Source of the DNA: Viridothelium virens
Lineage: Eukaryota; Ascomycota; Dothideomycetes; Trypetheliales; Trypetheliaceae
Direction of reading: 5' to 3'
NCBI GenBank assembly: GCA_010094025.1
Contig: ML991840.1
Coordinates: 1-64,000, forward strand
DNA length: 64,000 nucleotides
Made by a program: the position numbers and the translations under genes. Below the pieces are notes generated by a model. The model had not been told where the DNA came from. It saw nothing but the letters and a program-made list of their open reading frames with translations, and made no database searches. This document shows, piece after piece, positions 5,142 through 41,017 of this stretch. The first letter of the stretch is position 1. Each line of letters begins with the position of its first letter.

Positions 5142-6730
5142 TCAGACCGATTCGATTGGACAATGCTCTTTTTGTATCGCAGGCAATGGATACTGCAGAA
5201 GCTCGAGCCGTGATACCACGTCGGCCTCGGTCCCTGGCAAATACCGGCCTGCTACAGACTGTACGTCGAAACCTACCGTCTTGGAGATACCCGCTGCATT
5301 CATTCCAGATATCAGCTCATCGTTACTTGAACGGTGAAATACGTTTGGTTGGTGGCTTGGCTCGGCTCTTTTTTGGATACTTGATCTTCTGCTTCTGGAG
5401 TTCGAATTGTCTCCCCTTAGGTATGTCGATAGTGTCGTTTTGATCTTGTCCAAAAACTCTCTCGACCTCTTATTAGTGATAATGCGGCCTGGACGCATAG
5501 CAGGAAGGCATATTGCAATATTTGCAACACCGATTTCGATCTGGGACCAGAATAAGAGAAGTGTAGTCGTACCAATGATGTCTGAAGAGGAAACACCTAG
5601 AACATTTCCAGGCTTCCCATTCTTGAGATAGCTAGCGTTATATCTAACATTGATATAAAGACGGAGGATGCCACAGACGAGGGACAGAGTACCCGTGAGG
5701 AGGGTGGCAACGACAGCGACCTTTTGAATCACGGCCATGTGCAGCCGCAAAACCTAATGCCAACATCAGAACGCTTGTGAGTGGTGACTAAGGCGAAGGC
5801 TGATTGATTACCATGGGTAACGGCAGTAAGATGATGAACACATCTCCGACAACGTCGAAAGCGCAACCGAACGTGTTCTCCGCTCTTATGTCTAGACAAT
5901 CTCTTCTCAAGTTAGCTATCGAAGCTGAACTACTGCTGAATTTCTTACTCTCCCAGAGCTTCGGCGCCACCCCATATAGCCTATTTAACAGTTCTGTCAG
6001 ATCAAAAAAAGTCGGAGCAAGTTTCAATACGATTGATGGCTTACCGAGAAGCGTCGACCACACATAAAAAAGCTGGACAAGGAGAAGATAGTAGACCACA
6101 AGAGAACAAGAGCAAAAAGGGTCCAATTGATGATATCGAAAGTTCTATTGCCGCCGCCGTTTTTATTGGCAAATATTCGACGATAAAGGAAGAGGACGGA
6201 GAGCTTCATGAAGCCAAGAGCGGCGTAACAGAACGAAGTCAGAAACCATACAAACTAGATATCTGGATCAGGATCTTTGGAGGAATTTAGTGGACTAAGT
6301 GACGAGAGTACCTGGAAGAAAACATTCAATCTATGCTGCACGTTAGGAGCATCCGAAACCATCAACTGGTGCCCAATGACTTGTTTAGCAACGCCTACGA
6401 CCACATTAGCGAGTATGCTCTGCGATTTCCAGGACGCCGGAATTTGGATGCACCAATGATCAAGCCAAGTCCAAATGCGAGATTGAATAACCAGCCGAGA
6501 ACGCATGACCACTCGTCCCACCCGAGTCCTGTCTTGCTAGTCCTCCTGAAATGAAAGCGCACGACAACTGCCGCCAGGCCTATCGCTGGGAAGAAGGCAC
6601 CGATGAAGGCACATGCTGCGGGAGTGGCATAGTAACCCATTGTCGAAGAGAATGCTGTGACTAAATATTCGAGTTCTTCGGGACAACGATCAACGTAGTT
6701 ATACCGTAGATGTATCGTTGACCTGGACAC
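5142..6730 (-). CDS. Rhodopsin-domain integral membrane protein (copy 1)
   Basis: This is a seven-helix fungal membrane protein of the Fung_rhodopsin type (PF20684), a family with no proven function in most fungi. Hydrophobic helices appear in order: ACAFIGAFFPAIGLAAVVV, the WDEW motif followed by VLGWLFNLAFGLGL, FVWFLTSF..FMKLSVLFLYRRIF, a helix before FMC, the DVVGDVFIILLPLPM helix, VAVVATLLTGTLSLVCGILRLY, and TTLLLFWSQIEIGVANIAICLPA. A basic, Ser-rich cytoplasmic tail follows. The pieces require at least four short introns; the clearest are GTACTC..ATCTAG (about 6251-6309), which joins FFQ to FVWFL, and GTAATC..CATTAG (about 5753-5814), which joins LPMV to LRLHM. The start may be 6730 or the Met at 6640. 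Two further members occur in this window. Confidence 0.75.
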
Positions 6731-9017: not shown

Positions 9018-12000
9018 ATGGCAGCTGAGGGTGTTCCCACACGACTGATTGTTTGCGTGGATGGAACGTGGTGTACGCCTGATGGACCCCATGGTAAGAC
9101 TAGCAATAGGGATTGCGGGATCCCGTGTTCGTCTAATTAGACGAGTTCTCGACAATCAGCAGAGTGCCAATGCGGAAATGAGCTGACACCATATCCCGCT
9201 TCCTCTGTGCCCGCACAATTGAAGTTGCAACGCCGCTGACGAATCTCCAGGAAACGAGCATCAAAATATCAGCAATGTTTATCGCCTGTGCGCTAGTGTC
9301 AAAGAGGGTCCCGTGGTAGATAAACAAGGGAACAACTTCATACAACGTAAGAAGTACTTCAATGGCATAGGCTCGAAAGACAACATATCACGACTGAAAA
9401 GGTTGAAAAGCGGTGTTCTCGGGGAGGGATGCTCAGAGTTGATTCGAGACGTTTATGATGAATGCTGTCAGCTGCCCGGCCATTCGCAAGATGAGTTATG
9501 GCTTTATGGCTTCAGCCGCGGAGCTTACATCGTACGCGCCGTTGCGGGCCTGCTCCATTACATACGTGCTCTCACTTCAGCGGGGACGACTAATTTCCAA
9601 ATGGATTATTCGAAGGCACTCGGGCAGTACAAGAATATGCAGAAAAATTCCAAACTACAGCAAGGGCGAATCCACGAAATACTTGCCTCTGCTACGCGAG
9701 AAGCGCCAAAAATCCAGTTTTTAGGAGCGTTCGATACGGTCAAGTACTTCAGCGATCGAGAACTGTACGATATCTCTTTTAACCACTCGATCCGTCACTT
9801 CCGCCATGCTCTTGCCCTTAACGAGTATCGGCGAGCCTTTATTCCAGAATATGCCTTCCCTGAGTTTTATCATGGAGGTCTTTCGAACCGGAGCTTTGTG
9901 CAAGCCTGGTTTATCGGCGCACACATTGACATGGGTGGGTCCGCTGCACGAGATGGCTTAGCTCTTTATCCCCTGCAATGGATGTTGCTTGAAAGCAGGC
10001 ATCAAGGTCTAGCTCTTGAATTTGACCGATCTCTTGAGTCTCGGGCATATATCGATAACCCGCTTGAGGTCTCGCTATCTGAAGCAGAAGGCGAGGAGAA
10101 GTTGTCGAGGTATTGGAATTGTACCACCAAGAACAAATTGCAAGTCACGATGCAAGATATACGCAAAACGCACACCTCATCAAGGTATCAAGGGCGATAC
10201 AGCATCCGTGTCAACCAACATAATGCGATTTATTACGTGAAGGAAAGCCGCAAGCCATTCAGCGAAGGGACTCTCAGAGGGTACTGCGAGTATGGTAAGT
10301 GCTACAGAACTTTACTTGTTACACCTCATCACGCCCTAGTCATGGATTGCAATACATCTCTTCGCCGTCACCTGAAGTTCAGACTGCCTATACCTATTCA
10401 TAGATAGTCTTGCGCCTACATCAACTGCCTTGATGGCGGTAAATCAATGTCTTTGACAGGTTTGGAAATCAAAATGATAGTTGCATCAGAAACAGTGTTG
10501 ATCTGGAACGGTTGCTTCCCAGCTGTAATTTTGGTGAAAGTTTTCTTCAGCCCAAACTCGCCTTGGGACTTGGGCCCTCTGAGCCTTGAACCAGTATACA
10601 CTTTCGTCAGTACATTTTCAACACCACTTTGACGAGCAAATACGCTCTTTGCGGCTATCTCATTAATTTCAAAAGAGCGTCGAGGCCGCATATTGCTCAC
10701 AGGATGTACTCTGAGAGCCTCCTCAGATGGAGCTCTTTCTCTATGACACTCAGATCGATATCGAGCTGCGCTGTAAAAATGCGTGCTAATTAGTGTTAGC
10801 TCCGCAGGGCACCATTATTCATCCATCTGTCTACCTGATCCTCGAAGAGTACCCGGGTTGTCTATTAGGCACAAAAGAAATGACCGACCGACAGCATATT
10901 GAGAATTGGCGCAATATGGCTCTCACATCAAGCGAGGGGTTTTGGAGCGAACAAGGTGATCTTAGTTTGGAGGTCGAAAGGATTCCTATCCGGGTATTGG
11001 TTTGTGGCAACACCGGCGTGGGAAAATCCACTTTGGTGAATAAGATCTTTGGCGAAGAAGTCACGACGTCTTCAGATCGGAAAGCAGGCTTGCACGATGT
11101 CAATAACGCCTTTACAACACCAAGTCGACCCGATCTTATAATCCATGACTCCGGAGGCTTTGAAGCTGGAGGGGATGAAGAGATCCAGAATGTCAAGCGA
11201 TTTGTCGTAGAAAAGTCAGCGGCCGGTGACATCAAGGATCGGTTGCACGTGATATGGCAAGTGGAACGCTTCTCTGTACCATGTCTTGCAGCTAAATCAC
11301 TTCAGGTTCTGCATTGATGTCAACACCGCTCGTACCCAGCAAAGAGCGACACGAAAGCTTTTCGAGGCTTGTTCACAAAGCGCGAAGAACATTCCGATTG
11401 TAGTCATTGCGACAAAGAAGGACGAGTTCATCCGAATGCAAAAGGGAACAGCGTTGGAGCAGATGCCAAATATGGATAGTATTCCAACAAGAGAGTTCAT
11501 GGCTCGTCTGCAAAGCTTTCCCGAAGAGCAGCTCCAAGAAAGAATGAAGCTGATAGAGAATGAGTTACTGGAGGTGGACACAGGGAGATTCGACGCTATC
11601 TTAGGTGTATCAAAAGGTCGGAGAATTGACGACACCTTTGCTCTCGCCCCAAACTGACTCGGGCAACAGATGACGAGGCATCGCTTAGATTTCTTACGAC
11701 GGAGACACTGCGTTGCTTTGATCACGAGAAGGTTCGCCTGTCCTACATTGCCGCGCAAGTGAACACTATCGATCTGAAAGTCGAACTAGCTATTGCGGAG
11801 AGCATGCGAGTATACAAGCACACCATGCGAACTTCAGTCGCTTCAGGAATTATACCAGGAGGAGCTACAACTACCCGTCTCACCGTGGCCGCGGTGGTCT
11901 GTCAGAAAGTCGTCAACTGCTTCGGAGTACCCGGTGTGAGCGTACAAACTATCCAGCAAATTGTGAAAACGGTCGTCTGGGATGACGTTAAAAACAACCT

Positions 12001-12568
12001 GGCTGTCTTTGGCGCGGAACTTGTCGCTTTTGGGGGCATGGCGGCTGGAACTACTGTCATACTTCTCCCGTTGGTTCTGGTTACGGGAGCAATCAATGCT
12101 TTCGTCGTCCCTCCTGCTACCGGCCGGCTTCTCTTGATGCTTGCTTGCGACCTTATACTCATATTGGTTCAAGCCTTCAAAGAGTCCATCAACAAATGCA
12201 TTGGACAGCCACGCGATAAAGATATCGAGAGAGCAGCGCATGCATACTATAAAATCTCGAAGAAAGTCCATAGAGAAGTCAAGGATGTTGTACCGAAGAA
12301 CATGATCAAAAACTTTAGATATGACAAGATCAGCAATAAGTTCAAGACTATCGTCGAGACGTATGTGGAGGAAGTGACCAAAGGTATTGATATGTCGAAG
12401 CTACGAATCAACAACCGCGATGACGATGACTCCGATTCCGATTCCGCTCCCGACGTCAAAGACGATGATTCTGTTGCAGACTATCTCAAGCCTGCAATGA
12501 CGTCTACCTCGACCCTCGTTTCTGATCACAACTCCTGGGATACACCTGTCCACAAGAAAGAGCTCTAG
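9018..12568 (+). CDS. DUF2235 (Tle1-like) hydrolase fused to a membrane-tailed GTPase
   Basis: Five exons fit one frame: 9018..9093, 9251..10294, 10800..11256, 11306..11616 and 11670..12568, giving 928 residues. The N-terminal part is a DUF2235 alpha/beta-hydrolase, with LIVCVDGTW at the start, the nucleophile elbow GFSRGA (Ser114) and IHPSVYLIL near its end. Residues from about 435 form a P-loop GTPase with GNTGVGKST (about 443-451), switch-like HDSGG and the G4 motif ATKKDEF. The C-terminal part has strongly hydrophobic helices at about 740-800, as in GTPases with DUF697-like membrane domains, then an acidic Asp/Ser-rich tail. Bacterial DUF2235 proteins include phospholipases, so a lipid substrate is possible but inferred. 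Intron 11257..11305 starts with GC. The 505-nt intron 10295..10799 is the key link; without it there would be two genes. Confidence 0.75.
10295..10799 (+). other. Long intron of the fusion gene with an antisense open frame
   Basis: The donor is GTAAGT, the branch candidate GCTAAT and the acceptor TTAG. Joining them gives CEY-APQGTIIHPSVY in phase, as expected for DUF2235 proteins. At 505 nt it is far longer than the gene's three 49-157-nt introns. On the minus strand it holds an open frame that runs from about 10775 to a stop at 10416, with an ATG at 10700 (94 codons). It looks protein-like (KVYTGSRLRGPKSQ) but matches no family I know. It may be a nested gene exon, an inserted fragment or chance. 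Confidence 0.5.
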
Positions 12569-13114: not shown

Positions 13115-16100
13115 TCATAACAGTATAACTACAGTCACAAGCCCAATCACCACACTTGACATGTTCCACAGCCCAATGATTGACCAACACGTCATTCTGA
13201 CTTTTCCCGAAACCGTACCTGACTCCACACCTGTCCCTAATCCAGTCGCAACAGCCGCTCCATTCGTATTCGAAGGCTCTCCTATCCCAACCCCTGACGA
13301 CGTCGCACTCATTTCCGCTCCCAGCACTTCCGTCGATCCCCCAACAACCGCAAACCTCTCATCCGCCGCTAAACTCACCACTACTCCATCCACCGTTACC
13401 TCTCCACCAGGCGTCAACGTCTCTCCCGGCGTAATGACATACTCCCCCGCCCCATCAGCCGTATAGACATGCCCCGCAACTGTCAGCGGCGGGAGCGTTC
13501 GCTGTGGCTGCAGAAACTCCGTCGAGGAGCCGATGACTACAAAGGCGTCATTTGCTGCAAGAGAGATGCGAGTGCCGTCAAGGGTTGCGACACCGCCGGG
13601 GGTAAGCGTCGTGCCTGGGCCAAGCATGTAGGCGCCGGTAGCATCAGGGTGTAAGACTGCAGTGCCGAGAGTGAGGAGACCGGGTGTGGGTGCGGTGTTG
13701 GAGGGCCCAAGGAGTTGAGTGGAGGAGCCGATGAGGGCGAAGAGGCCGTTGGAGGCGAGGGATATGCGAGTTCCACTGAGGGTTGCCACGCCACCGGGAG
13801 TTAGTACGGTGCCTGCTGAGAGGGTATAGGCGCCTGCACTGTCAGCGGTGATTTGCACGTTGCCGACTCTGAGTGGAGCGGGTGTGACGGTGGGCTTGGC
13901 GGCTGCATTTGGAAGTGCTACCGTCTTCGGGGCATCGCCTTTGTTTTCTGCGATGACAAGGCCTTGGTCTCCAAGAGATACCGGCACATTGTTGATGGTA
14001 GTTGCTGGCGCGCTCATTGCCACTTTATGACCATTGACCACGGCAACGCTAGGATCGGAAGGGTCTTTGGCAATTTTGAGTCCATCGACGGCAGTAGGAT
14101 TGCTACCAATGTCGTCTACGTTCGCGATGGAAGGGCCAGAGGAATTGTCTGCGTCATCGTCTCCTTGATCTTGCTTCCAACCAGCCTCTAGGACAGCTGG
14201 GATATCACTGCCCACAGCACCTGCATCTGCCCTATGTGGATCATTTCCAGGGTCACTTCCCCCTGATTCTCCGCTGAACTGACCATGGTCTTGAACTTGG
14301 CTATGGGGATCCTCACCTTCGGTACTACCCTGCACCTTACTCGGTGCTTCCGATCCTTTGTCTGGAGCAGTAGGGGTTGAATGAATACCAGCATTAGATG
14401 GAGCACCAGGGCTACTGAAAGCAGCACTAATGATACCCCAGACACTATCTGGTGTAGGTGTTCCTGGTCCATCCCCTTTGCCACCGTTGTTTTGCGCTGG
14501 TGGACGGACGATAAGATCGCCGCCCTGCGGCCTAGAAGTGTCTGTGTCATCCGTATCAGGATCTGTTTCAGATGAAGCCTCGTCGCCCTCGTTACCATTA
14601 GGATCACTACTACCGGTTGGCTTTTCTGGACTGTCTGGCGGCAACGGGGCTTTACCAGGCTGCGGATCGCCAGTAATTTGGGGCCCTGGTTTTGGGACCG
14701 TAGCAACGGGTGCTGCTGTCGGCGATGCATGAGGGATCACTAAGGTAGGTGCGTTTGTGAGCACTTCGGGCGCGGGCCAAGGAATAGGATCCGGAACATC
14801 CGCACTGCCTTGTGCCGTGAGTGCATGTGGTGGGTCATAGAAGCCTCCAAACGGAATTGCGCAGTGAGACCAAGCAGGGTCTAAGGTACGCACTTGAGGT
14901 GGCACGACGAGCGCAGGTCGGTAGTCCGAGTTTACGATGGTGCTGCATGGGCACGATTCGATTGGTATCGAAGGGTCGGCGGTGCCGTAGACACAGTGAC
15001 ATGAAGATTGACCGGAGTACGCGCTCCAAGGGATTGGATAGTTGAGATCAGCGTAGTTGAACGGATAGGCGAGGTAATCGATGTGAGCAAGCAAGGCGTT
15101 ACTGTCTACAGTACCATATCGAGCGCTAGAGACATCGCTAGAAGCCAGGGTAAGAATATGTCCTGGGTATGACGAGCCAATTGGGGTTCCGCAGGCGTCT
15201 TGAGCGTACACCTCCTGGATGGAGATGTAGACACTGTTGAGATAGAATGTATATCCATTTGATACCGTGCTCGGACCGGATCCATTATTAGCTGGGCCTA
15301 AGGAGAGTCGCATAATCAGTAGACGTCCTCTACCCAAAGTTATAAGAAGCACCAACCGTCTGGAAGATCCGTACGGGTGTACGTCAAGGGACCCCCAACT
15401 GGAGAACTCGCACACATGTCACGCGACAAGTTGGCAGTGACTGGAGCATAATACATCTCCACTGTGCCACCGAAAATAGTGCAAGCTCCGCATATCCCTG
15501 TATTGCAGTAGCTATTGTAAGCCGGAGATGGTGCATAATAGGAGGATGTTGGTTTCGCGGCTTGTAAAGCACTACAGTCCGTCGAATCGACATGGCAGAC
15601 TGGCGAAGGGCTGGGATATGGTCCACTCATTGGAAGTGGGTGGTAGTTGTAATATGAAGAGGTCGACTCGGAGACCGCTGCGGATGGCTCAGAGCCAATC
15701 GGTCGAGGATGGCCATCGCAGAGCGTTTCAAAGTCTCCTCCGTAGATAGTAGTTGTGTAGGTGCTGGTGAAGTATTGAGTAGTGAATGGCTGTGAAAGGT
15801 TGTCATACTTCCAGAAAGATGCGGAGGCACTCCAGCTAGTTCCAAGGTCAGAACAGCTGCTTGCATATACGAGTCCTAGCGCGCAAGTTAGCAAAGTCGT
15901 ATGTCGGCTTGAGCAATTTAGAGACGTGCTGAGGCCTTGGGATCATTCTTGGTGCAGGAAAATCCTCAAGTTAGGTATCTGGTAATCGGATTTCCGTACC
16001 ATTGTGTTGTACCGGAAGTTCGTGAGAATGATGCTGGACGGAAGGAATAGAAGAGTCGCGTCACGAATGTAGAGGGAACATGAGCCTACCACTTCCAGTG

Positions 16101-17832: not shown

Positions 17833-20800
17833 TCACCTCAGAATGTCCCCAGCGAACCGGTGGAGTAGTCTTCCCGCCATGCCTCGACCTTGGAACATAT
17901 CCTGCACCGACTGCGCCAGAGGATCTTCAGGAATCTTCCTCCCTTTCCTATCGAATCGCGGAGGTAAATCCACCGTACTCTCGCTACCATCGCTCCCAGT
18001 TGGTGAAGAGTCCCTTCCCCGTGAACGCTGCTTATCCCGATCAAGGTGTGGGTTACCATTCCCGCCGCTACGCCGTTGTCTTGCGTCATCCCCTTGTCTA
18101 GGTGACTCCCCATGTCCATCCAGGCCCCTCGTGTCATGACCATCCCGCTCGTAGTGCTGTCGCTGCCTGTGATTTCGTGAAGAAGATGGAAGTCGCGGCT
18201 CCCCCTCCATCGGGCTGATCTCACTCTCCGAGTGCTCCTCGTCCTGCAAGTTGAACTGCACCTTCCGCCCTGGACTTGGTGCCGAGCTCGCCCTAGTCCG
18301 CTCCCTCTCCTGCTCTCGCCGCTCGCCCCGCTCCCGGGATCGGGCGCGGGGTTTTCGCGTGCGCGGCGAAGGGGTGGTCACACCATCTGGAACCTGATTA
18401 GCATGATGAGGGTTGAGCTGGCTAGCGCGGCGCGTCGCACTATTGCTCTCCTGCTGTCGACTCGCAAATGATGCAGCAGCTGCAGAGGCATGGGGAGCTG
18501 TCGTGGAGGCACTCACATCGTTTGGGTCATGTTCACGTGGGACATGCCCTGCCGGTCCCGCTGCAGGCTGGTGACTCCATTGTTGCTGCTGGGCACCAGG
18601 AGGTGGGGTATAGTATTGATCTTGGGGAAGGGCTTGTGGAGGTTCGCTGGACATAGGGGGATAATCCTGCGGATTGTAGGGTGGGTAAGGATTTTCCTCA
18701 GGATGCATGGGCTGCTGTTGCGGAGGATAGCCGCCAGAGTTTGGTGGAGGTGGGAAAGCGTTGTTGTGGGGATAGTAATTAGGTTCTTGAGTATAGGGGT
18801 TGACTGCGGGATGACCTGGAGAATATGGTCCTTGCTCTACTGGGGGATAACCCTCTTCCGCTTCGCGGCCTATTGTTAAGTGTGAGGGAGATAATAGATA
18901 TGCTGGATAAGAATAGCACTTACGTCTCCGTTCTCTTTCTGCCCTCTTGCGCTCGGATCGTTGTGTTGCTTTGTGAGCAGCGACGCCGGCAGCGCCAGCC
19001 ACTGCGGCAGTCTCAGCGGCACGTCTTGTCCGACTCTTACTTCTGCTTCTTCCACCACCTGGGCTAGACGATGCGGAAGAGCCACGACGATGTCTTCTGT
19101 AGTCTGCGGGATCATCGTAATCTCGCCCGCCGCGTCCCCGGTAGTAGTCTTCTTCGCGATCCGGATAGATGGGCTCACCACCGTACTCTATAAGTGCAGG
19201 GTCATTCGCTGGTCTTCGGTCATCGTATGGTGGAACAGACCTTGACCTCGGCCTCGACCTGGATCGTTCCTCAACTTCACGCTCCCCTTTCTTGTTCTTT
19301 CTCTGCTCGTAGAGACCCGCCAATGCTGCCCCTCCCAAGCCTGCAGCGGCAATAGGCGCGGCCTGTCGGATGCGAGATCGAGACCGATTATCGCCCTTGC
19401 GCTGGCGAGACTTGCTACGAGCTCGCTCAACAAGGCCCGCAACGGCTGCTGAAGCAAGACCTGCCTGCGCCACACGGGAATTACGATGCTGCGAATTCGC
19501 ACGTCTGGCTTCTTCGGGAGGCACCGATTCGAAAGATCCTGGAGAGCCGGGTCGAACTCGAGACCTGCTCCTGCCACGGTCTTCAATTACTACTTCCTGC
19601 TGCTGATTTTTGCCTCTTTGCTTTAGAGCGTAGCCAGCCAAGGCACCGACAGCGGCCACACCAGCAAGACCGGCGAGTTGGCGAGCTCTGGACTTGGAAC
19701 GCTCGCGACTCCGGCTCTTTGATTTTTCCTTATCTTTGTGACTGTGATGATGGCGGTGACGATGACGATGTCTCCTTCCACGATCACTTGACTCAGAGCG
19801 CGATCGCTCTTCCTTGCGGCGGCGGCTTCGGCTTCGAAGTCTCGAGACAGCTTCGGCACCCGCAGCGCCAACTATTCCACCGGCAGCTGCATTGCTTAGT
19901 CGACCGCCATGTTCACCCCCTTCATTTTTCCTATGTCGACGTAAGAGTTCTCCACCCACCACACCAGCAAGAGCACCTTCCGCAAGGTGTCGTCTGTGAT
20001 GAGGACTGGCTTCACGAGATCCGGCACGAGAGCCGGTTCTTTTCTTGTAGTAGACGAGATCCTCATCACTGGACCAATGGTCGTCGCCGTATTGGGAAGC
20101 GGACTCTCGAGGATGCACTTCCCTGCGACGATCCCACTCTTCGTCAGACCAAGATTCTCGTCGCTGAGGGCGCTCTACTTCCTTGATCCTGCGCTCATAG
20201 TAGTAGTCTTCTTCTTTTGGCTGAGGTGCAGGAGCAGGTGGAGGTGGTTCTTCACGACGAACTACAGATCGGTTGTCGTTTACCTCAGATCGTTCGATCA
20301 TTTCGTAAGACTCCTCTTGGCGTCGAGGCGGGGAGCGCTCCCGTGAACGTTCACGCAGAATGATCGGTTGAGGCGCAGCCTCGCGAATGATGATGGGTTG
20401 TGGTGCTGGTTCACGAATGATGATGGGTTGCGGAGCCTCGGGACGGGCAAAGAATTCAGTCGATTTGGAGTACCTTTCGACGTCGAATGGTAGACGTCTA
20501 GATGGCTCTTCGCGGTCTTCATTACGAACAACCCGGACTTCGCGCCTGTACGCAGCTGGTGGGGACGGTGCTCGTTCGACCGGGAAATCACGTTCGATGC
20601 GATAGTTATGGTCGGAACGGTAATCACGTTGAGATGATGGCGGACTTCGCGTACGGCGATCGATATCTCGATCAACTTCTCGCTCTATCCGCCACTCTCT
20701 GATGTTATCCGGCGGAGAGGGTTGGCGCTCACGGCGGATAATGCGCGTCTCGCCAATTCGAGTCTCACCACCTCGAGTCTCGGTCTCGAATCGATCGGTC

Positions 20801-20946
20801 TCGCTGGACCGCTCTGGCACTTTGTAGCGCCGAACTGTTGTGAAGGTTCTTGGACCCTCGTAGACAGAACGAGTGGTGTCCCAATCTCTATCGCGATCGC
20901 GCTCATGCTCTCGCTCTCTTTCCCTTTCTCTAATAATGACAGACAT
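17833..20946 (-). CDS. DUF3824 Arg/Ser- and Arg/Glu-rich protein
   Basis: The long frame starts with an Arg/Glu/Asp run and continues through Arg/Ser-rich blocks. These are interrupted by short Ala/Gly-rich hydrophobic helices of the DUF3824 type, such as LAGLAGVAAVGALAGYAL and AAPIAAAGLGGAALAGLYE. Near residues 180-205 the unit PQPIIIRE is repeated three times. The C-terminal third is rich in Pro, Tyr and Gln. A 54-nt segment at 18870..18923 has GTAAGT and ATAG ends, a CTTAAC branch site and no stop, and removing it joins the basic run directly to EAEEGY. I take it as an intron, giving 1019 residues instead of 1037. Proteins of this type are fungus-specific and of unknown function. RS-rich composition alone does not show a splicing role. 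Confidence 0.8.
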   Translation of the reverse strand: MSVIIREREREREHERDRDRDWDTTRSVYEGPRTFTTVRRYKVPERSSETDRFETETRGGETRIGETRIIRRERQPSPPDNIREWRIEREVDRDIDRRTRSPPSSQRDYRSDHNYRIERDFPVERAPSPPAAYRREVRVVRNEDREEPSRRLPFDVERYSKSTEFFARPEAPQPIIIREPAPQPIIIREAAPQPIILRERSRERSPPRRQEESYEMIERSEVNDNRSVVRREEPPPPAPAPQPKEEDYYYERRIKEVERPQRRESWSDEEWDRRREVHPRESASQYGDDHWSSDEDLVYYKKRTGSRAGSREASPHHRRHLAEGALAGVVGGELLRRHRKNEGGEHGGRLSNAAAGGIVGAAGAEAVSRLRSRSRRRKEERSRSESSDRGRRHRHRHRHHHSHKDKEKSKSRSRERSKSRARQLAGLAGVAAVGALAGYALKQRGKNQQQEVVIEDRGRSRSRVRPGSPGSFESVPPEEARRANSQHRNSRVAQAGLASAAVAGLVERARSKSRQRKGDNRSRSRIRQAAPIAAAGLGGAALAGLYEQRKNKKGEREVEERSRSRPRSRSVPPYDDRRPANDPALIEYGGEPIYPDREEDYYRGRGGRDYDDPADYRRHRRGSSASSSPGGGRSRSKSRTRRAAETAAVAGAAGVAAHKATQRSERKRAERERRRKCYSYPAYLLSPSHLTIGREAEEGYPPVEQGPYSPGHPAVNPYTQEPNYYPHNNAFPPPPNSGGYPPQQQPMHPEENPYPPYNPQDYPPMSSEPPQALPQDQYYTPPPGAQQQQWSHQPAAGPAGHVPREHDPNDVSASTTAPHASAAAASFASRQQESNSATRRASQLNPHHANQVPDGVTTPSPRTRKPRARSRERGERREQERERTRASSAPSPGRKVQFNLQDEEHSESEISPMEGEPRLPSSSRNHRQRQHYERDGHDTRGLDGHGESPRQGDDARQRRSGGNGNPHLDRDKQRSRGRDSSPTGSDGSESTVDLPPRFDRKGRKIPEDPLAQSVQDMFQGRGMAGRLLHRFAGDILR
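18870..18923 (-). other. Probable 54-nt stop-free intron in the DUF3824 gene
   Basis: It has a canonical GTAAGT donor, ATAG acceptor and internal TTAAC, with length a multiple of three and no in-frame stop. Retention would add 18 residues (hydrophobic and Tyr/Ser-rich) that look out of place between two charged blocks. Confidence 0.65.
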
Positions 20947-23307
20947 GATGTATGACCGTTCGGTGTTGGTATGCCGTGGAAGTGGAGCTCAGTGGTGTCA
21001 AAAGTCGCACCAAAGCTTCCAGACGGCGAGGCAAGGCTTAGTTGGGTACCGAGGGTTCGCTGGTGCAAAAATTTTCTCTTGGCTTCCACGGAAGGATGGG
21101 AAGTATGCTTTGATTCCGAAAGACTGGCGGGTCGGCTAGTAATGTGAGAGGGATGAGAGGTTGAAGTGGCACGAGGTCGTTGACGTGGGTGTTGAGGTGA
21201 GGAGAAGGACGGATCCTTGCTTGGGTGGGATGGACAGGAATCTCGACTTATCAGGCCACGGGTCGGCCCATGTGTTGGTAGACAGGCGAACCGATGGCGA
21301 AAGCTGGCCCGATGGAGGACACAACGGGCGAGGATGGTCAGTGGTGAAACTCGGGAGGGACGCAGGACGAGGGATAAGGCAATCTGGCGTGAAGGATTTC
21401 CGCCGGCGAAGAATAGAGCTGGAAGTGGGCTGAGCGCTTGATGTGAGCGTGGCTGGTGGCAGGCGCGGCTAAAGACGCTACGCTCAGATGACGTAACCTA
21501 TCGCCTTCGCAATCCTCTCAATCTTGATTTTTCCTGCATACGGCGATGAAATCAACATGCTAGGCCCACTCGTTGTAGAAAGAAAAGTGCAACGCTACTG
21601 AGATGAGCCGTGGCATCAGTCCCTTTACATACAGTACTCCACTCGGCTTCCAAGTCGTGCTCATCTCAGCCTCGGTGATCCAATGTTTGCATCGCCTTGA
21701 GGCTCTGCACACCTTCCAGCCCGCGTGATCATCCGTGTCACTCTTGACTACCCAACTAGGCTGCCAAAGCTTGTAGACTTAAGCCAAATAGAGTTCGGGA
21801 CGAAGACTGCGGAAATGCCGCATCGCGTCTTTCTAAACTCTTGGCCTTTTTGTTGCCTAATGGCGCCAAGTCTTGTAGCTTGGGGTCTTTCCCGTATCTG
21901 ACAACGTGCGTCTAAGTCAGGACGCCCGAGCACGCAAGGCTACTAGGAACATCTCGTCTATTTTGCGACTACTCCTCCCTGGTTTATTATACAGTTTTCA
22001 TGTAACGCCCAACTCTCGCCCGACATACGGAATATGTATCGCGTAATTACTAATTACCACTTTGTATCTCTCGATTCTATGAACTCAAAGCAAGATCTCG
22101 GCACTGAAATGACCGGACCGCGCTCTGCAATCGTATAAGGAACTAGTCTGATTTCGCTGAGCCAGTTGGTCCATCTGCTGAATGAGCGTTGAACTCATTC
22201 GATGATCCATTTTCTAGGTTGCGCTAGGTATTTTCCCACCCTATTCTCTAGGACAATGCTCTTCGTTGAATGAAAAGGAGAACACTATCGCCTGGTGCAT
22301 CGATTTGATGCTACTGTTGTTGAAGTCTGCTACCTGGGTACGCTCCGAAAAATCCTCTACTCCATACGACATGTGGTATGGGCTTACGCTAGAAAAGATA
22401 TAGGCCGGAAGAGTGATGAGATCGCATAGTTGATTGTACTCCATCACTCTGGCATACTTTCCTGCTACGTACTAAGTGTGGAGTACTGTATATCGTTCCT
22501 CAACGTCAACCCACCAGTCACCCTGGTTATTCATCCCCACTTCAGGTCCATTCCGTGGTACACACGATCTGGACACTTTGTGTACCCTTTGCCTCTGAAG
22601 TAGGTTTTGGGCAACGGGTGAACCCGCGCCAGGGGCTTTCCATGGCTTTGAACTTAAAGAGAGCCAGCAAACCCATGGAACGTTCCGTAACGTTTTGACG
22701 GCTCTCGCCGGGGTGATCCAGTCGATCGCTCTTTCCTTAACTTGTACATAGAACAAAGCGGAAGAGATTCAAGTGGGTGGGGCACTGTTTGTTTGAGACT
22801 TTTTACGGTGTTCAACTAACGTGGCTACCAGGTGAATACTCCAATAGCTCTCTAGGATGACCCACTGACAACGTCTATCTTACTCACTTGCCTCTTTCTT
22901 TCAGGCCTCAGATACTGTGGCTGTAGACTTGACTGCAACCCTCTCTCTCACCTGCGCATCGCTTCACATTCATTTAAACCCAGCTTTTTCTGTCTCTTCT
23001 GAAATCATTGCAACGCTCTAACCACTCTATCTTTCGACCGTCTGGAAAACAACAAGACGATTTTTCTTCGGTAAGCTTATATGATCGAAGGCGGCTGTTT
23101 TGTTCATCTTCTTAGCTTTGATTCTCTTTCCTCCAAGGTCCAGTTCACATCGGGTACGCGCAGAACGTTTAAGAGGGCTACAAGCTCTACATCCGCAGCC
23201 CTTTTGTTTGCTTCAAAATGACCATGTTACAAATTTTTAACGCTGCTGAAAATTGCTCTTCCTACGGTCCATACAGCTCGCTAATCCATCTCAGCTCCAG
23301 TTTCAAC
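20947..23307. promoter_or_regulatory. Divergent intergenic region with a pyrimidine-rich leader
   Basis: About 2.4 kb lie between the starts of the DUF3824 gene and the secreted-protein gene. The last 300 bp before 23308 are rich in C and T, typical of strongly expressed fungal genes. A possible small leader intron (GTAAGC at 23071 to TTAG at 23115) is seen. No gene could be supported in the rest. Confidence 0.35.
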
Positions 23308-39800: not shown

Positions 39801-41017
39801 TTACTTGTCGAGCCTCATATCCCTTGTCACCGTGATAACCCCTGGGTTCGTATCGTCTTTGCTGCTATTCAAGTCTTTCAACTCGTTAGCAGGCCCTTCC
39901 GCCCAGATGCCATCTTCGACCTCGTCGATCGGTGTGCTACTCATCCTCAAGTCTCGCCTTGTTTCACTCTCGTGTGTTCTGCCATGCCTTGACGACCTTT
40001 CTTCACTCGTCGTGGGCTTTGTAAGATGCAGTTTCATGAGGACTCGGCGGAAGAGTTTGCCGTAGGTTGGGAGGCAAACGCTGACTAAACCCACAGGCGA
40101 TTCGGAATCAGACCAAAGGCCAAGGTCCACCAAGTTCCAAGTAATGTCGTCCTTCACGGGCTGCAGCGCGTAATGCAAGCGAACGATAGAGATTACAGTT
40201 ACTCTAGTATAGATATTAGCCGATCATGATCGAGTAAAGGGAGTTTGTTCAGGGATGCTCACAAGCCTCCCATCATAAAGATACCAATCAGGGCGGCCCT
40301 TGAGCTCCGCGGCAGTTTAATTCCCCACACGAGTGGGACTGCCAGACCCAGGATAATAAGATCGAAAATAACAGTAGGTATGGATTGACCGAGGAACAGT
40401 GCTTCCTGACTGATACACTTTCCGGATATATCCTGATCCCAGAACTTATGGACAGGACTGCACTGGAAAAGGGCAATGCATTCGATGATGATTAGCCAGA
40501 TACCAATCGCGGCAGAAAGCATCCACGTCATAAATCTGAGTCGCCTATCATGAGGAAACACTCGTACATAAAATAGCAGAAGCGCTATTTTGAAGAAGAC
40601 TAGACCCGGGGCGTAGACAGCGAGTTGAAGATAGAGCTGCTTGAAGTATTCTGGAAGATTTTCGTTGGGGAGGGTCGCAAGATGAACGCCTTGGCCTGCT
40701 CGCACGACTAAGAGATGTGAGTATTACATTAGGTAGGATGTGCAAATAGAGCTCGATGTAAACTCACACTCTCCGCTCAGGACGTTGATGGCTAATGAGT
40801 AAGGAAGTCCAATGAGGGTGATCCAGTCATCCCACCAAAGGCCTACTCCAGATTCTATGCGAGCATAGAAGCGCAACGCGACGGCCGCCATTGCAAGTAT
40901 ACCCATTGCTACATTTTCAGCAACGATTCCAGGCCTTCGGTCCTCCGAGCAGAATTGAGCAGAGTGATTTTGCAAGCAAGCATCCATTGAGTAGAAGCGC
41001 GCCAGGCGCTTGGTCAC
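39801..41017 (-). CDS. Rhodopsin-domain integral membrane protein (copy 2)
   Basis: Exons 41017..40768, 40707..40263 and 40203..39801 join in phase to 365 residues, or 355 from the Met at 40987. It is a Fung_rhodopsin-type protein: an N-terminal extracellular Cys pair (DACLQN..QFCSED), the helix AENVAMGILAMAAVALRFYAR, the diagnostic WWDDW, LVFFKIALLLFYVRVF, ALFQCSPVHKFWD, a long helix TVIFDLIILGLAVPLVW, and a last helix crossing the 59-nt second intron. A hydrophilic, acidic tail of about 110 residues follows. These proteins sit in the plasma or internal membranes, and their ligands are mostly unknown. Domain order is the same as in the copy at 5142. Confidence 0.82.

What the first reader, a model, noticed from the sequence alone, without database searches (positions are those of the whole stretch)
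9018..12568. DUF2235 hydrolase fused to a membrane-tailed GTPase
Five in-phase exons join a Tle1-like hydrolase (GFSRGA, Ser114) to a P-loop GTPase (GNTGVGKST, DSGG, TKKD) with C-terminal hydrophobic helices. DUF2235 enzymes in bacteria include secreted phospholipases. A GTP-switched, membrane-bound lipid hydrolase would be a new kind of fungal machine, perhaps in membrane remodelling or non-self response.
Basis: partly seen in the sequence, partly recalled or inferred. Interest (0 to 1): 0.72.

Follow-up and report, generated by a model that had tools for sequence, protein, structure and literature searches.

The report
Fungal phospholipase-like enzyme joined to GTPase
A fungal gene appears to encode one protein that joins a bacterial-toxin-like lipid-cutting enzyme to a GTP-binding switch with a membrane anchor, which would be an unusual way for a fungus to hold a membrane-damaging enzyme under control.

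Summary
On the + strand, 9018-12568 reads as one 5-exon gene of about 928 aa. Its N-terminus is a Tle1-like (DUF2235/PF09994) hydrolase (169 bits). An MMR_HSR1 GTPase (36 bits) and two adjacent hydrophobic segments follow. The Ser114-Asp187-His250 triad is invariant in 60 of 60 aligned rows. A C-terminal I-H-x-S-V motif found in 30 of 80 bacterial relatives lies in the same uninterrupted exon as the P-loop, upstream of that exon's first in-frame ATG. That argues against two genes. The genome's two other DUF2235 genes show no GTPase. None of 80 bacterial and 29 viral DUF2235 loci showed a nearby GTPase, by tests with poor sensitivity. The hydrolase half is very divergent. Best reading: an endomembrane-anchored, GTP-regulated phospholipase-type effector, laid out like fungal hydrolase-STAND receptors with a different switch. 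Lipase activity, GTP control and role are inferred. The splice before exon 3 is unsettled. No fungal collection was available to see how common the fusion is.

The parts
9018..9093 (+). Exon 1: start codon and first strand of the hydrolase with DGT (aa 15-17)
   Evidence: DGT invariant in 10/10
9094..9250 (+). Intron 1, 157 nt, GT-AG
9251..10294 (+). Exon 2: most of the Tle1-like/DUF2235 catalytic domain; alternative donor at 10237
9514..9516 (+). Ser114 codon, nucleophile in GFSRGA
   Evidence: invariant in 10/10 and 60/60; position checked
9733..9735 (+). Asp187 codon, FDTV box
   Evidence: invariant in 10/10 and 60/60; box aligned with Tle1-family chains; position checked
9922..9924 (+). 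His250 codon, GAHIDMGG box
   Evidence: invariant in 10/10 and 60/60; box aligned with Tle1-family chains; position checked
10295..10799 (+). Intron 2, 505 nt; in-frame alternatives 10295-10793 and 10237-10807; only its own match found in this genome
10800..11256 (+). Exon 3: hydrolase C-terminal motif plus first half of the GTPase in one uninterrupted reading frame
10817..10831 (+). IHPSV, matches the [IVL]HxSV pattern near the C-terminus of 30 of 80 bacterial DUF2235 proteins
11006..11032 (+). G1/P-loop GNTGVGKST
11147..11158 (+). G3 DSGG
11257..11305 (+). Intron 3, 49 nt, GC-AG
11306..11616 (+). Exon 4: second half of the GTPase
11412..11423 (+). G4 TKKD
11617..11669 (+). Intron 4, 53 nt, GT-AG
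11670..12568 (+). Exon 5: tail, hydrophobic pair, acidic C-terminus and stop
12053..12178 (+). Two hydrophobic segments, aa 758-776 and 781-799, four residues apart
   Evidence: hydropathy peaks 2.35 and 2.04 over 19 residues; positions checked
12554..12565 (+). C-terminal KKEL, fits the K-K-x-x dilysine signal
   Evidence: motif definition in the abstract start of PMC3521961 (listing)

Best explanation
One gene encodes an endomembrane-anchored (most likely ER) protein. Its parts are a Tle1-type Ser-Asp-His lipid hydrolase, a TRAFAC (MMR_HSR1) GTPase, a helical tail with a membrane hairpin, and a cytosolic KKEL dilysine tail. The nucleotide state or GTP-driven self-association of the GTPase controls when the hydrolase reaches phospholipids of the membrane it sits on. 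The likely use is a latent, self-directed membrane-lipid effector in stress or non-self response, with a GTPase in the place of the STAND switch of fungal NLRs. Shown by sequence: the parts, their order, intact catalytic and nucleotide-binding motifs, two hydrophobic segments and KKEL. Inferred: transcription as one mRNA, lipase activity, topology, GTP control and biological role.
For: In-phase five-exon frame. PF09994 and MMR_HSR1 above cut-off. Triad invariant in 60/60. The profile's three best solved structures are 9j3f (Tle1 phospholipase domain), 4o5p (that it is P. aeruginosa Tle1 is recalled) and 6sjl (Tle1 by its title); Foldseek's five hits at E<=0.001 are 6sjl, 4o5p (2 chains), 4m0m and 9j3f. 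IHPSV shares an exon with the P-loop and precedes the exon's first in-frame ATGs at 10880 and 10916. In the 30 bacterial proteins with the motif it lies 19-111 aa from the C-terminus, in 26 within 47 aa; here the P-loop starts 63 aa after it. Hydrophobic pair in the tail. Very long hydrolase branch (4.27 vs median 0.38) with the triad kept, as in fast-evolving conflict genes. Bacterial Tle1 is a phospholipase A2, toxic when membrane-associated (PMC13133936, passages).
Against: No transcript or activity data. The in-frame acceptors for donor 10295 are weak, and intron 3 needs a GC donor. A profile of the 80 bacterial ORFs aligned to the fused protein only up to aa 339 and did not itself reach the IHPSV motif, so that link rests on a pattern noticed after the fact. 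The tail matched no Pfam family except a weak FtsK_4TM hit (E 0.097), and its single-sequence model is poor (pLDDT 42). The hydrolase model's TM-scores to Tle1 are only 0.30-0.34; it lacks exon 1, and residues 265-347 are mostly low-confidence. No HET, NLR or other immune domain was found among the 30 window ORFs scanned (28 of the 54 of at least 150 aa, and 2 shorter). Fast evolution can also mean relaxed constraint.
Confidence: 0.45

Rival explanations
1. A membrane-anchored GTPase-lipase for ordinary lipid remodelling (ER or lipid-droplet turnover), not for killing or non-self response.
For: Same anatomy: intact triad, hydrophobic pair, KKEL tail. No second GTPase-tail copy found in this genome at E<=0.001 and no immune domain among the 30 window ORFs scanned.
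Against: The hydrolase belongs to a family filed as toxins (PMC3482391) and sits on a very long branch, unlike a conserved housekeeping enzyme.
Confidence: 0.27
2. An alpha/beta hydrolase acting on something other than phospholipid, for instance a thioesterase that removes lipid from proteins, regulated by the GTPase.
For: After the five Tle1-like hits Foldseek lists thioesterases, but weakly (E 0.04 and above). Substrate cannot be read from the triad.
Against: The five hits at E<=0.001 are Tle1-family chains and the functionally unknown lpg2422.
Confidence: 0.15
3. Two neighbouring genes: a hydrolase ending at 10407 and a GTPase starting at ATG 10880 or 10916.
For: Long intron 2 with weak in-frame acceptors for the strong donor; an open frame runs to 10407; the bacterial profile does not reach exon 3.
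Against: An IHPSV motif like that near the C-terminus of 30 of 80 bacterial relatives lies at 10817, inside the GTPase exon and upstream of its first ATG; the pattern is expected 0.0016 times in 30 residues of this window's six-frame translation. The run-on to 10407 scores lower than any exon.
Confidence: 0.06
4. A fusion gene that is decaying and no longer works.
For: GC donor in intron 3, weak acceptor in intron 2, very long branch.
Against: No stop or frameshift in 928 codons; triad and G1, G3, G4 intact; positive codon score in exons 2-5.
Confidence: 0.07

Closest known systems
Tle1 / DUF2235 hydrolases (PF09994; Tox-ABhydrolase-1 of Zhang et al. 2012)
   Same: Catalytic domain, Ser-Asp-His boxes, and the IHxSV motif seen near the C-terminus of 30 of 80 bacterial members.
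   Different: Spliced fungal gene, followed by a GTPase and hydrophobic tail in place of the Tle1 membrane-anchoring module; 24-34% identity to the 9 relatives aligned.
MMR_HSR1 / Era-Der-like TRAFAC GTPases
   Same: G1, G3, G4 motifs and Pfam, NCBIfam and PDB similarity.
   Different: Carries an N-terminal hydrolase and a hydrophobic tail; far below the cut-offs of the Era and Der equivalogs (35 vs 237 and 29.8 vs 306.7 bits).
AIG1/GIMAP immune GTPases
   Same: Same broad GTPase group and, for some GIMAPs, a C-terminal membrane anchor (both recalled).
   Different: AIG1 model below its cut-off (16.5 vs 27 bits); GIMAP structures match only at E 0.2-0.3; no hydrolase in GIMAPs (recalled).
Fungal NLRs with patatin or SesB-like hydrolase effector
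   Same: N-terminal lipid hydrolase, then an NTPase switch; PLP-1 patatin domain essential for cell death (PMC10197012 passages).
   Different: A TRAFAC GTPase, not STAND; no repeat sensor matched in Pfam; a hydrophobic tail instead.
Bacterial GTPase-centred conflict systems (DO-GTPase; Kaur et al. 2020)
   Same: GTPase as switch, often at a membrane, with effectors (PMC7159879 passages).
   Different: Multi-gene systems; the term DUF2235 does not occur in that paper's main text.

Membership tests
PF09994 T6SS_Tle1-like_cat (DUF2235) | Score over the curated cut-off | tested here: met
   169.3 vs 27 bits, aa 9-271
PF09994 T6SS_Tle1-like_cat (DUF2235) | GxSRGA nucleophile, DTV aspartate and GxHxDxGG histidine | tested here: met
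   Ser, Asp and His invariant in 60 of 60 rows; boxes aligned with 4o5p, 9j3f and 6sjl
Tle1 phospholipase effector | Phospholipase A activity | not testable with these tools
   Needs an enzyme assay
Tle1 phospholipase effector | Delivered by a type VI secretion system with adaptor and immunity partners | tested here: not met
   Fungal gene with introns; none of the 30 window ORFs scanned matched secretion parts at E<=0.01
MMR_HSR1 (TRAFAC) GTPase | Score over the curated cut-off with G1, G3 and G4 motifs | tested here: met
   36 vs 21.9 bits; motifs located
MMR_HSR1 (TRAFAC) GTPase | Binds and hydrolyses GTP | not testable with these tools
   Needs an assay
AIG1/GIMAP | Score over the AIG1 cut-off | tested here: not met
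   16.5 vs 27 bits
Fungal NLR (STAND) | NACHT or NB-ARC domain | tested here: not met
   Neither is among the 19 Pfam matches at E<=1
DUF697-tailed GTPase | DUF697 match in the tail | tested here: not met
   Not among the 19 Pfam matches at E<=1; a remote relation cannot be excluded
COPI dilysine cargo | K-K-x-x at a cytosolic C-terminus of a membrane protein | tested here: inconclusive
   KKEL present; topology only inferred from two adjacent hydrophobic segments

The most novel reading that the evidence does not exclude
A fungal one-protein cell-death device: a toxin-family phospholipase held at the ER by a hairpin and dilysine tail and released by a GTPase switch, in effect an NLR-like receptor-effector in which a TRAFAC GTPase replaces the STAND domain.
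Probability: 0.25. Interest if true: 0.75.

Novelty: new variant of a known kind. Interest (0 to 1): 0.47.

Why it matters
DUF2235 hydrolases were said in 2012 to have entered fungi before the ascomycete-basidiomycete split, and fungal use in intra-specific conflict was suggested for a subset of such toxin domains (PMC3482391). A copy wired to a GTPase and a membrane tail would hint at how a fungus keeps such an enzyme latent and directs it at its own membranes. It would widen the fungal hydrolase-plus-NTPase plan beyond STAND switches, and it is testable with one deletion, one localisation and one enzyme assay.

Tried and rejected
Two-gene reading: judged unlikely, because a DUF2235-like C-terminal motif lies in the GTPase exon. 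Acceptor 10807 with donor 10295: rejected, it breaks the frame. Intron 2 as a repeat or a hidden gene: 1 match (itself) in the genome for its DNA and for the 132-aa antisense ORF, and no Pfam family at E<=0.01 for that ORF.

GTPase near bacterial DUF2235 genes: the 80 bacterial loci are the best 80 of at least 565 relatives. phmmer with the window's GTPase and tail over L017-L102 hit only the window's own pieces in L097 and L098, and nothing in the 29 viral loci. Run on its own over four known GTPase loci (L099-L102) it also found none, so it only excludes close relatives. A motif pattern found 0 of 80 and 0 of 29 but recovered only 2 of 4 controls. Pfam on 8 of the 80 bacterial proteins, chosen among the longest, gave PF09994 in 8 of 8, a thioredoxin/DsbA domain in one, and no GTPase.

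Tail identity: Pfam gave one weak transmembrane hit, and the NCBIfam and PADLOC matches lie in the GTPase part; the single-sequence fold was poor. Finding relatives of the fused gene: genome contigs none, viral contigs none for the GTPase part, plasmids 108 records, none covering 80% of the query (20 listed, 8 fetched). Grouping the three fungal hydrolases: they did not form one group, but the fusion's branch is too long for a safe placement.

Literature: searches listed 14, 9, 13 and 0 papers; no title or abstract start shown names a DUF2235-GTPase fusion. Three papers on fungal NLRs and cell death hold neither DUF2235 nor GTPase in their main text. I read passages only of PMC3482391, PMC10269595, PMC5536079, PMC7824268, PMC9815663, PMC10197012, PMC13133936, PMC12881547, PMC7159879 and PMC8195603, plus section 33 of PMC3482391; the rest I saw as listings (included). 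PMC3521961 was seen as an abstract start only. The search was too loose to be useful.

Full report
What is there. The window lies on a 159-kb contig of a 30.7-Mb genome. Other window ORFs carry fungal families such as fungal rhodopsin, FTA2 and KAR9, so this is a fungus, most likely a filamentous ascomycete (inference). On the + strand 9018-12568 an in-phase five-exon gene encodes 928 residues. Codon usage, trained on eight other window ORFs, is positive in the named frame of exons 2-5 (0.059 to 0.097 per codon) and above every other frame of those exons. Exon 1 (25 codons) scores -0.031 and says nothing. The run-on past the exon 2 donor toward the stop at 10407 scores -0.109. The measure is weak: the antisense frame in intron 2 reaches 0.046 and a reverse frame of exon 1 reaches 0.063.

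Splicing. The consensus donor at 10295 leaves one base over, and the tidy acceptor at 10807 needs none, so that pair breaks the frame. Three pairs keep the frame and the IHPSV motif: 10295/10799, 10295/10793 and 10237/10807. Four more acceptor choices keep the frame but lose the motif. All seven keep the fusion. Intron 3 needs a GC donor.

Hydrolase. PF09994 matches aa 9-271 at 169 bits. Across 60 aligned sequences the Ser, Asp and His of the three boxes are invariant. The rows are window exon 2 plus 59 bacterial segments: 60 of the 80 fetched loci were tried and one was dropped as not in frame or not stop-free. A ten-row profile finds 9j3f, 4o5p and 6sjl as its three best PDB matches; 9j3f and 6sjl are named Tle-family phospholipase or effector, and that 4o5p is Tle1 is recalled. 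The exon 2 model (pLDDT 72) gives five Foldseek hits at E<=0.001: 6sjl, 4o5p (two chains), 4m0m and 9j3f. TM-scores are low (0.30-0.34), perhaps in part because exon 1 is missing and the last quarter is uncertain.

GTPase and tail. MMR_HSR1 matches aa 438-563 at 36 bits against a cut-off of 21.9. AIG1 stays below its cut-off, and DUF697 is not among the matches. PDB similarity is best to Der/EngA. The tail holds two hydrophobic segments, 758-776 and 781-799, four residues apart, which suggests a hairpin with both ends in the cytosol (inference). The protein ends in KKEL, which fits the K-K-x-x signal that COPI uses to return membrane proteins to the ER (PMC3521961, abstract start in the listing). 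With this protein's lysine content such an ending would arise by chance in roughly 0.4% of proteins, so it is a lead, not proof.

Is the fusion real? Bacterial DUF2235 proteins often carry [IVL]HxSV near the end (30 of 80), 72-116 residues after the histidine box, and in 26 of these 30 the C-terminus follows within 47 residues. The fusion has IIHPSV at 10817 in exon 3, 132 residues after the box (110 with the 10237/10807 splice), in the same open frame as the P-loop 63 residues later and upstream of that exon's first in-frame ATGs, 10880 and 10916. The pattern occurs 7 times in the six-frame translation of the whole window, 0.0016 expected in 30 residues. A separate GTPase gene would leave this piece untranslated. 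Two cautions: the motif was noticed before it was counted, and a profile of the 80 bacterial ORFs aligned only up to aa 339 and did not reach it.

How unusual? The genome has three DUF2235 loci. Around the other two there is no homologous GTPase, none of the genome's 23 MMR_HSR1 matches at E<=0.001 lies on their contigs, no GTPase motif pattern in the 5-5.5 kb around them, and only PF09994 in the pieces scanned (the whole C30 frame and one C21 exon). None of the 80 bacterial loci (the best 80 of at least 565; up to 4 kb of flank) and none of 29 viral loci showed a GTPase. The phmmer test missed 4 of 4 control GTPase loci and the motif test found 2 of 4, so these negatives are soft. Of the 108 plasmid records matched, none covers 80% of the query. 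No fungal collection was available, so recurrence in fungi is unknown. The literature searches listed no paper whose title or abstract start names this fusion.

Evolution. In a 62-row tree the fusion's hydrolase has an end branch of 4.27 against a median of 0.38, and the three fungal copies do not group. The placement is unsafe. Divergence with a kept triad is what a conflict gene would show, but an old divergent paralogue or relaxed constraint would look alike.

Mechanism. Bacterial Tle1 is a phospholipase A2 with a catalytic domain and a membrane-anchoring module, toxic when membrane-associated (PMC13133936, passages). Here the anchoring role could pass to the GTPase tail. I propose that the resting GTPase holds the hydrolase away from the bilayer, and that GTP-driven self-association exposes it to ER or endomembrane phospholipids. 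Fungal receptors with patatin or SesB-like hydrolases on STAND NTPases give the functional parallel, and bacterial conflict systems use GTPase switches. The proposal is inference throughout.

Verdict. A real and unusual architecture built from known parts: a new variant of a known kind. Interest is moderate until transcripts and fungal orthologues are checked.

Noticed in passing
L002 1900-2200 (own genome C21): The C21 DUF2235 paralogue reads GVFETVG where all 60 rows of A2 keep Asp (frame translation; A2): a possible Asp-to-Glu change in the catalytic acid.
   Followed up: no
window 10416-10814, - strand: A 132-codon antisense open frame nearly fills intron 2; only its own match in the genome, no Pfam family at E<=0.01, codon score 0.046.
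   Followed up: partly
window 13115-15418, - strand: A 767-aa open frame with internal repeats of the type LTPGGVATLSGTRISLA, convergent with the finding, no Pfam family at E<=0.01.
   Followed up: no
window 17833-20988, - strand: A 1051-aa open frame with DUF3824.
   Followed up: no
window 5142-5753 and 40259-40723, - strand: Two pieces of fungal rhodopsin-domain (Fung_rhodopsin) genes.
   Followed up: no
L062 4001-5776: A bacterial DUF2235 protein (Paraoerskovia) with a C-terminal DsbA/thioredoxin domain in the same frame.
   Followed up: no
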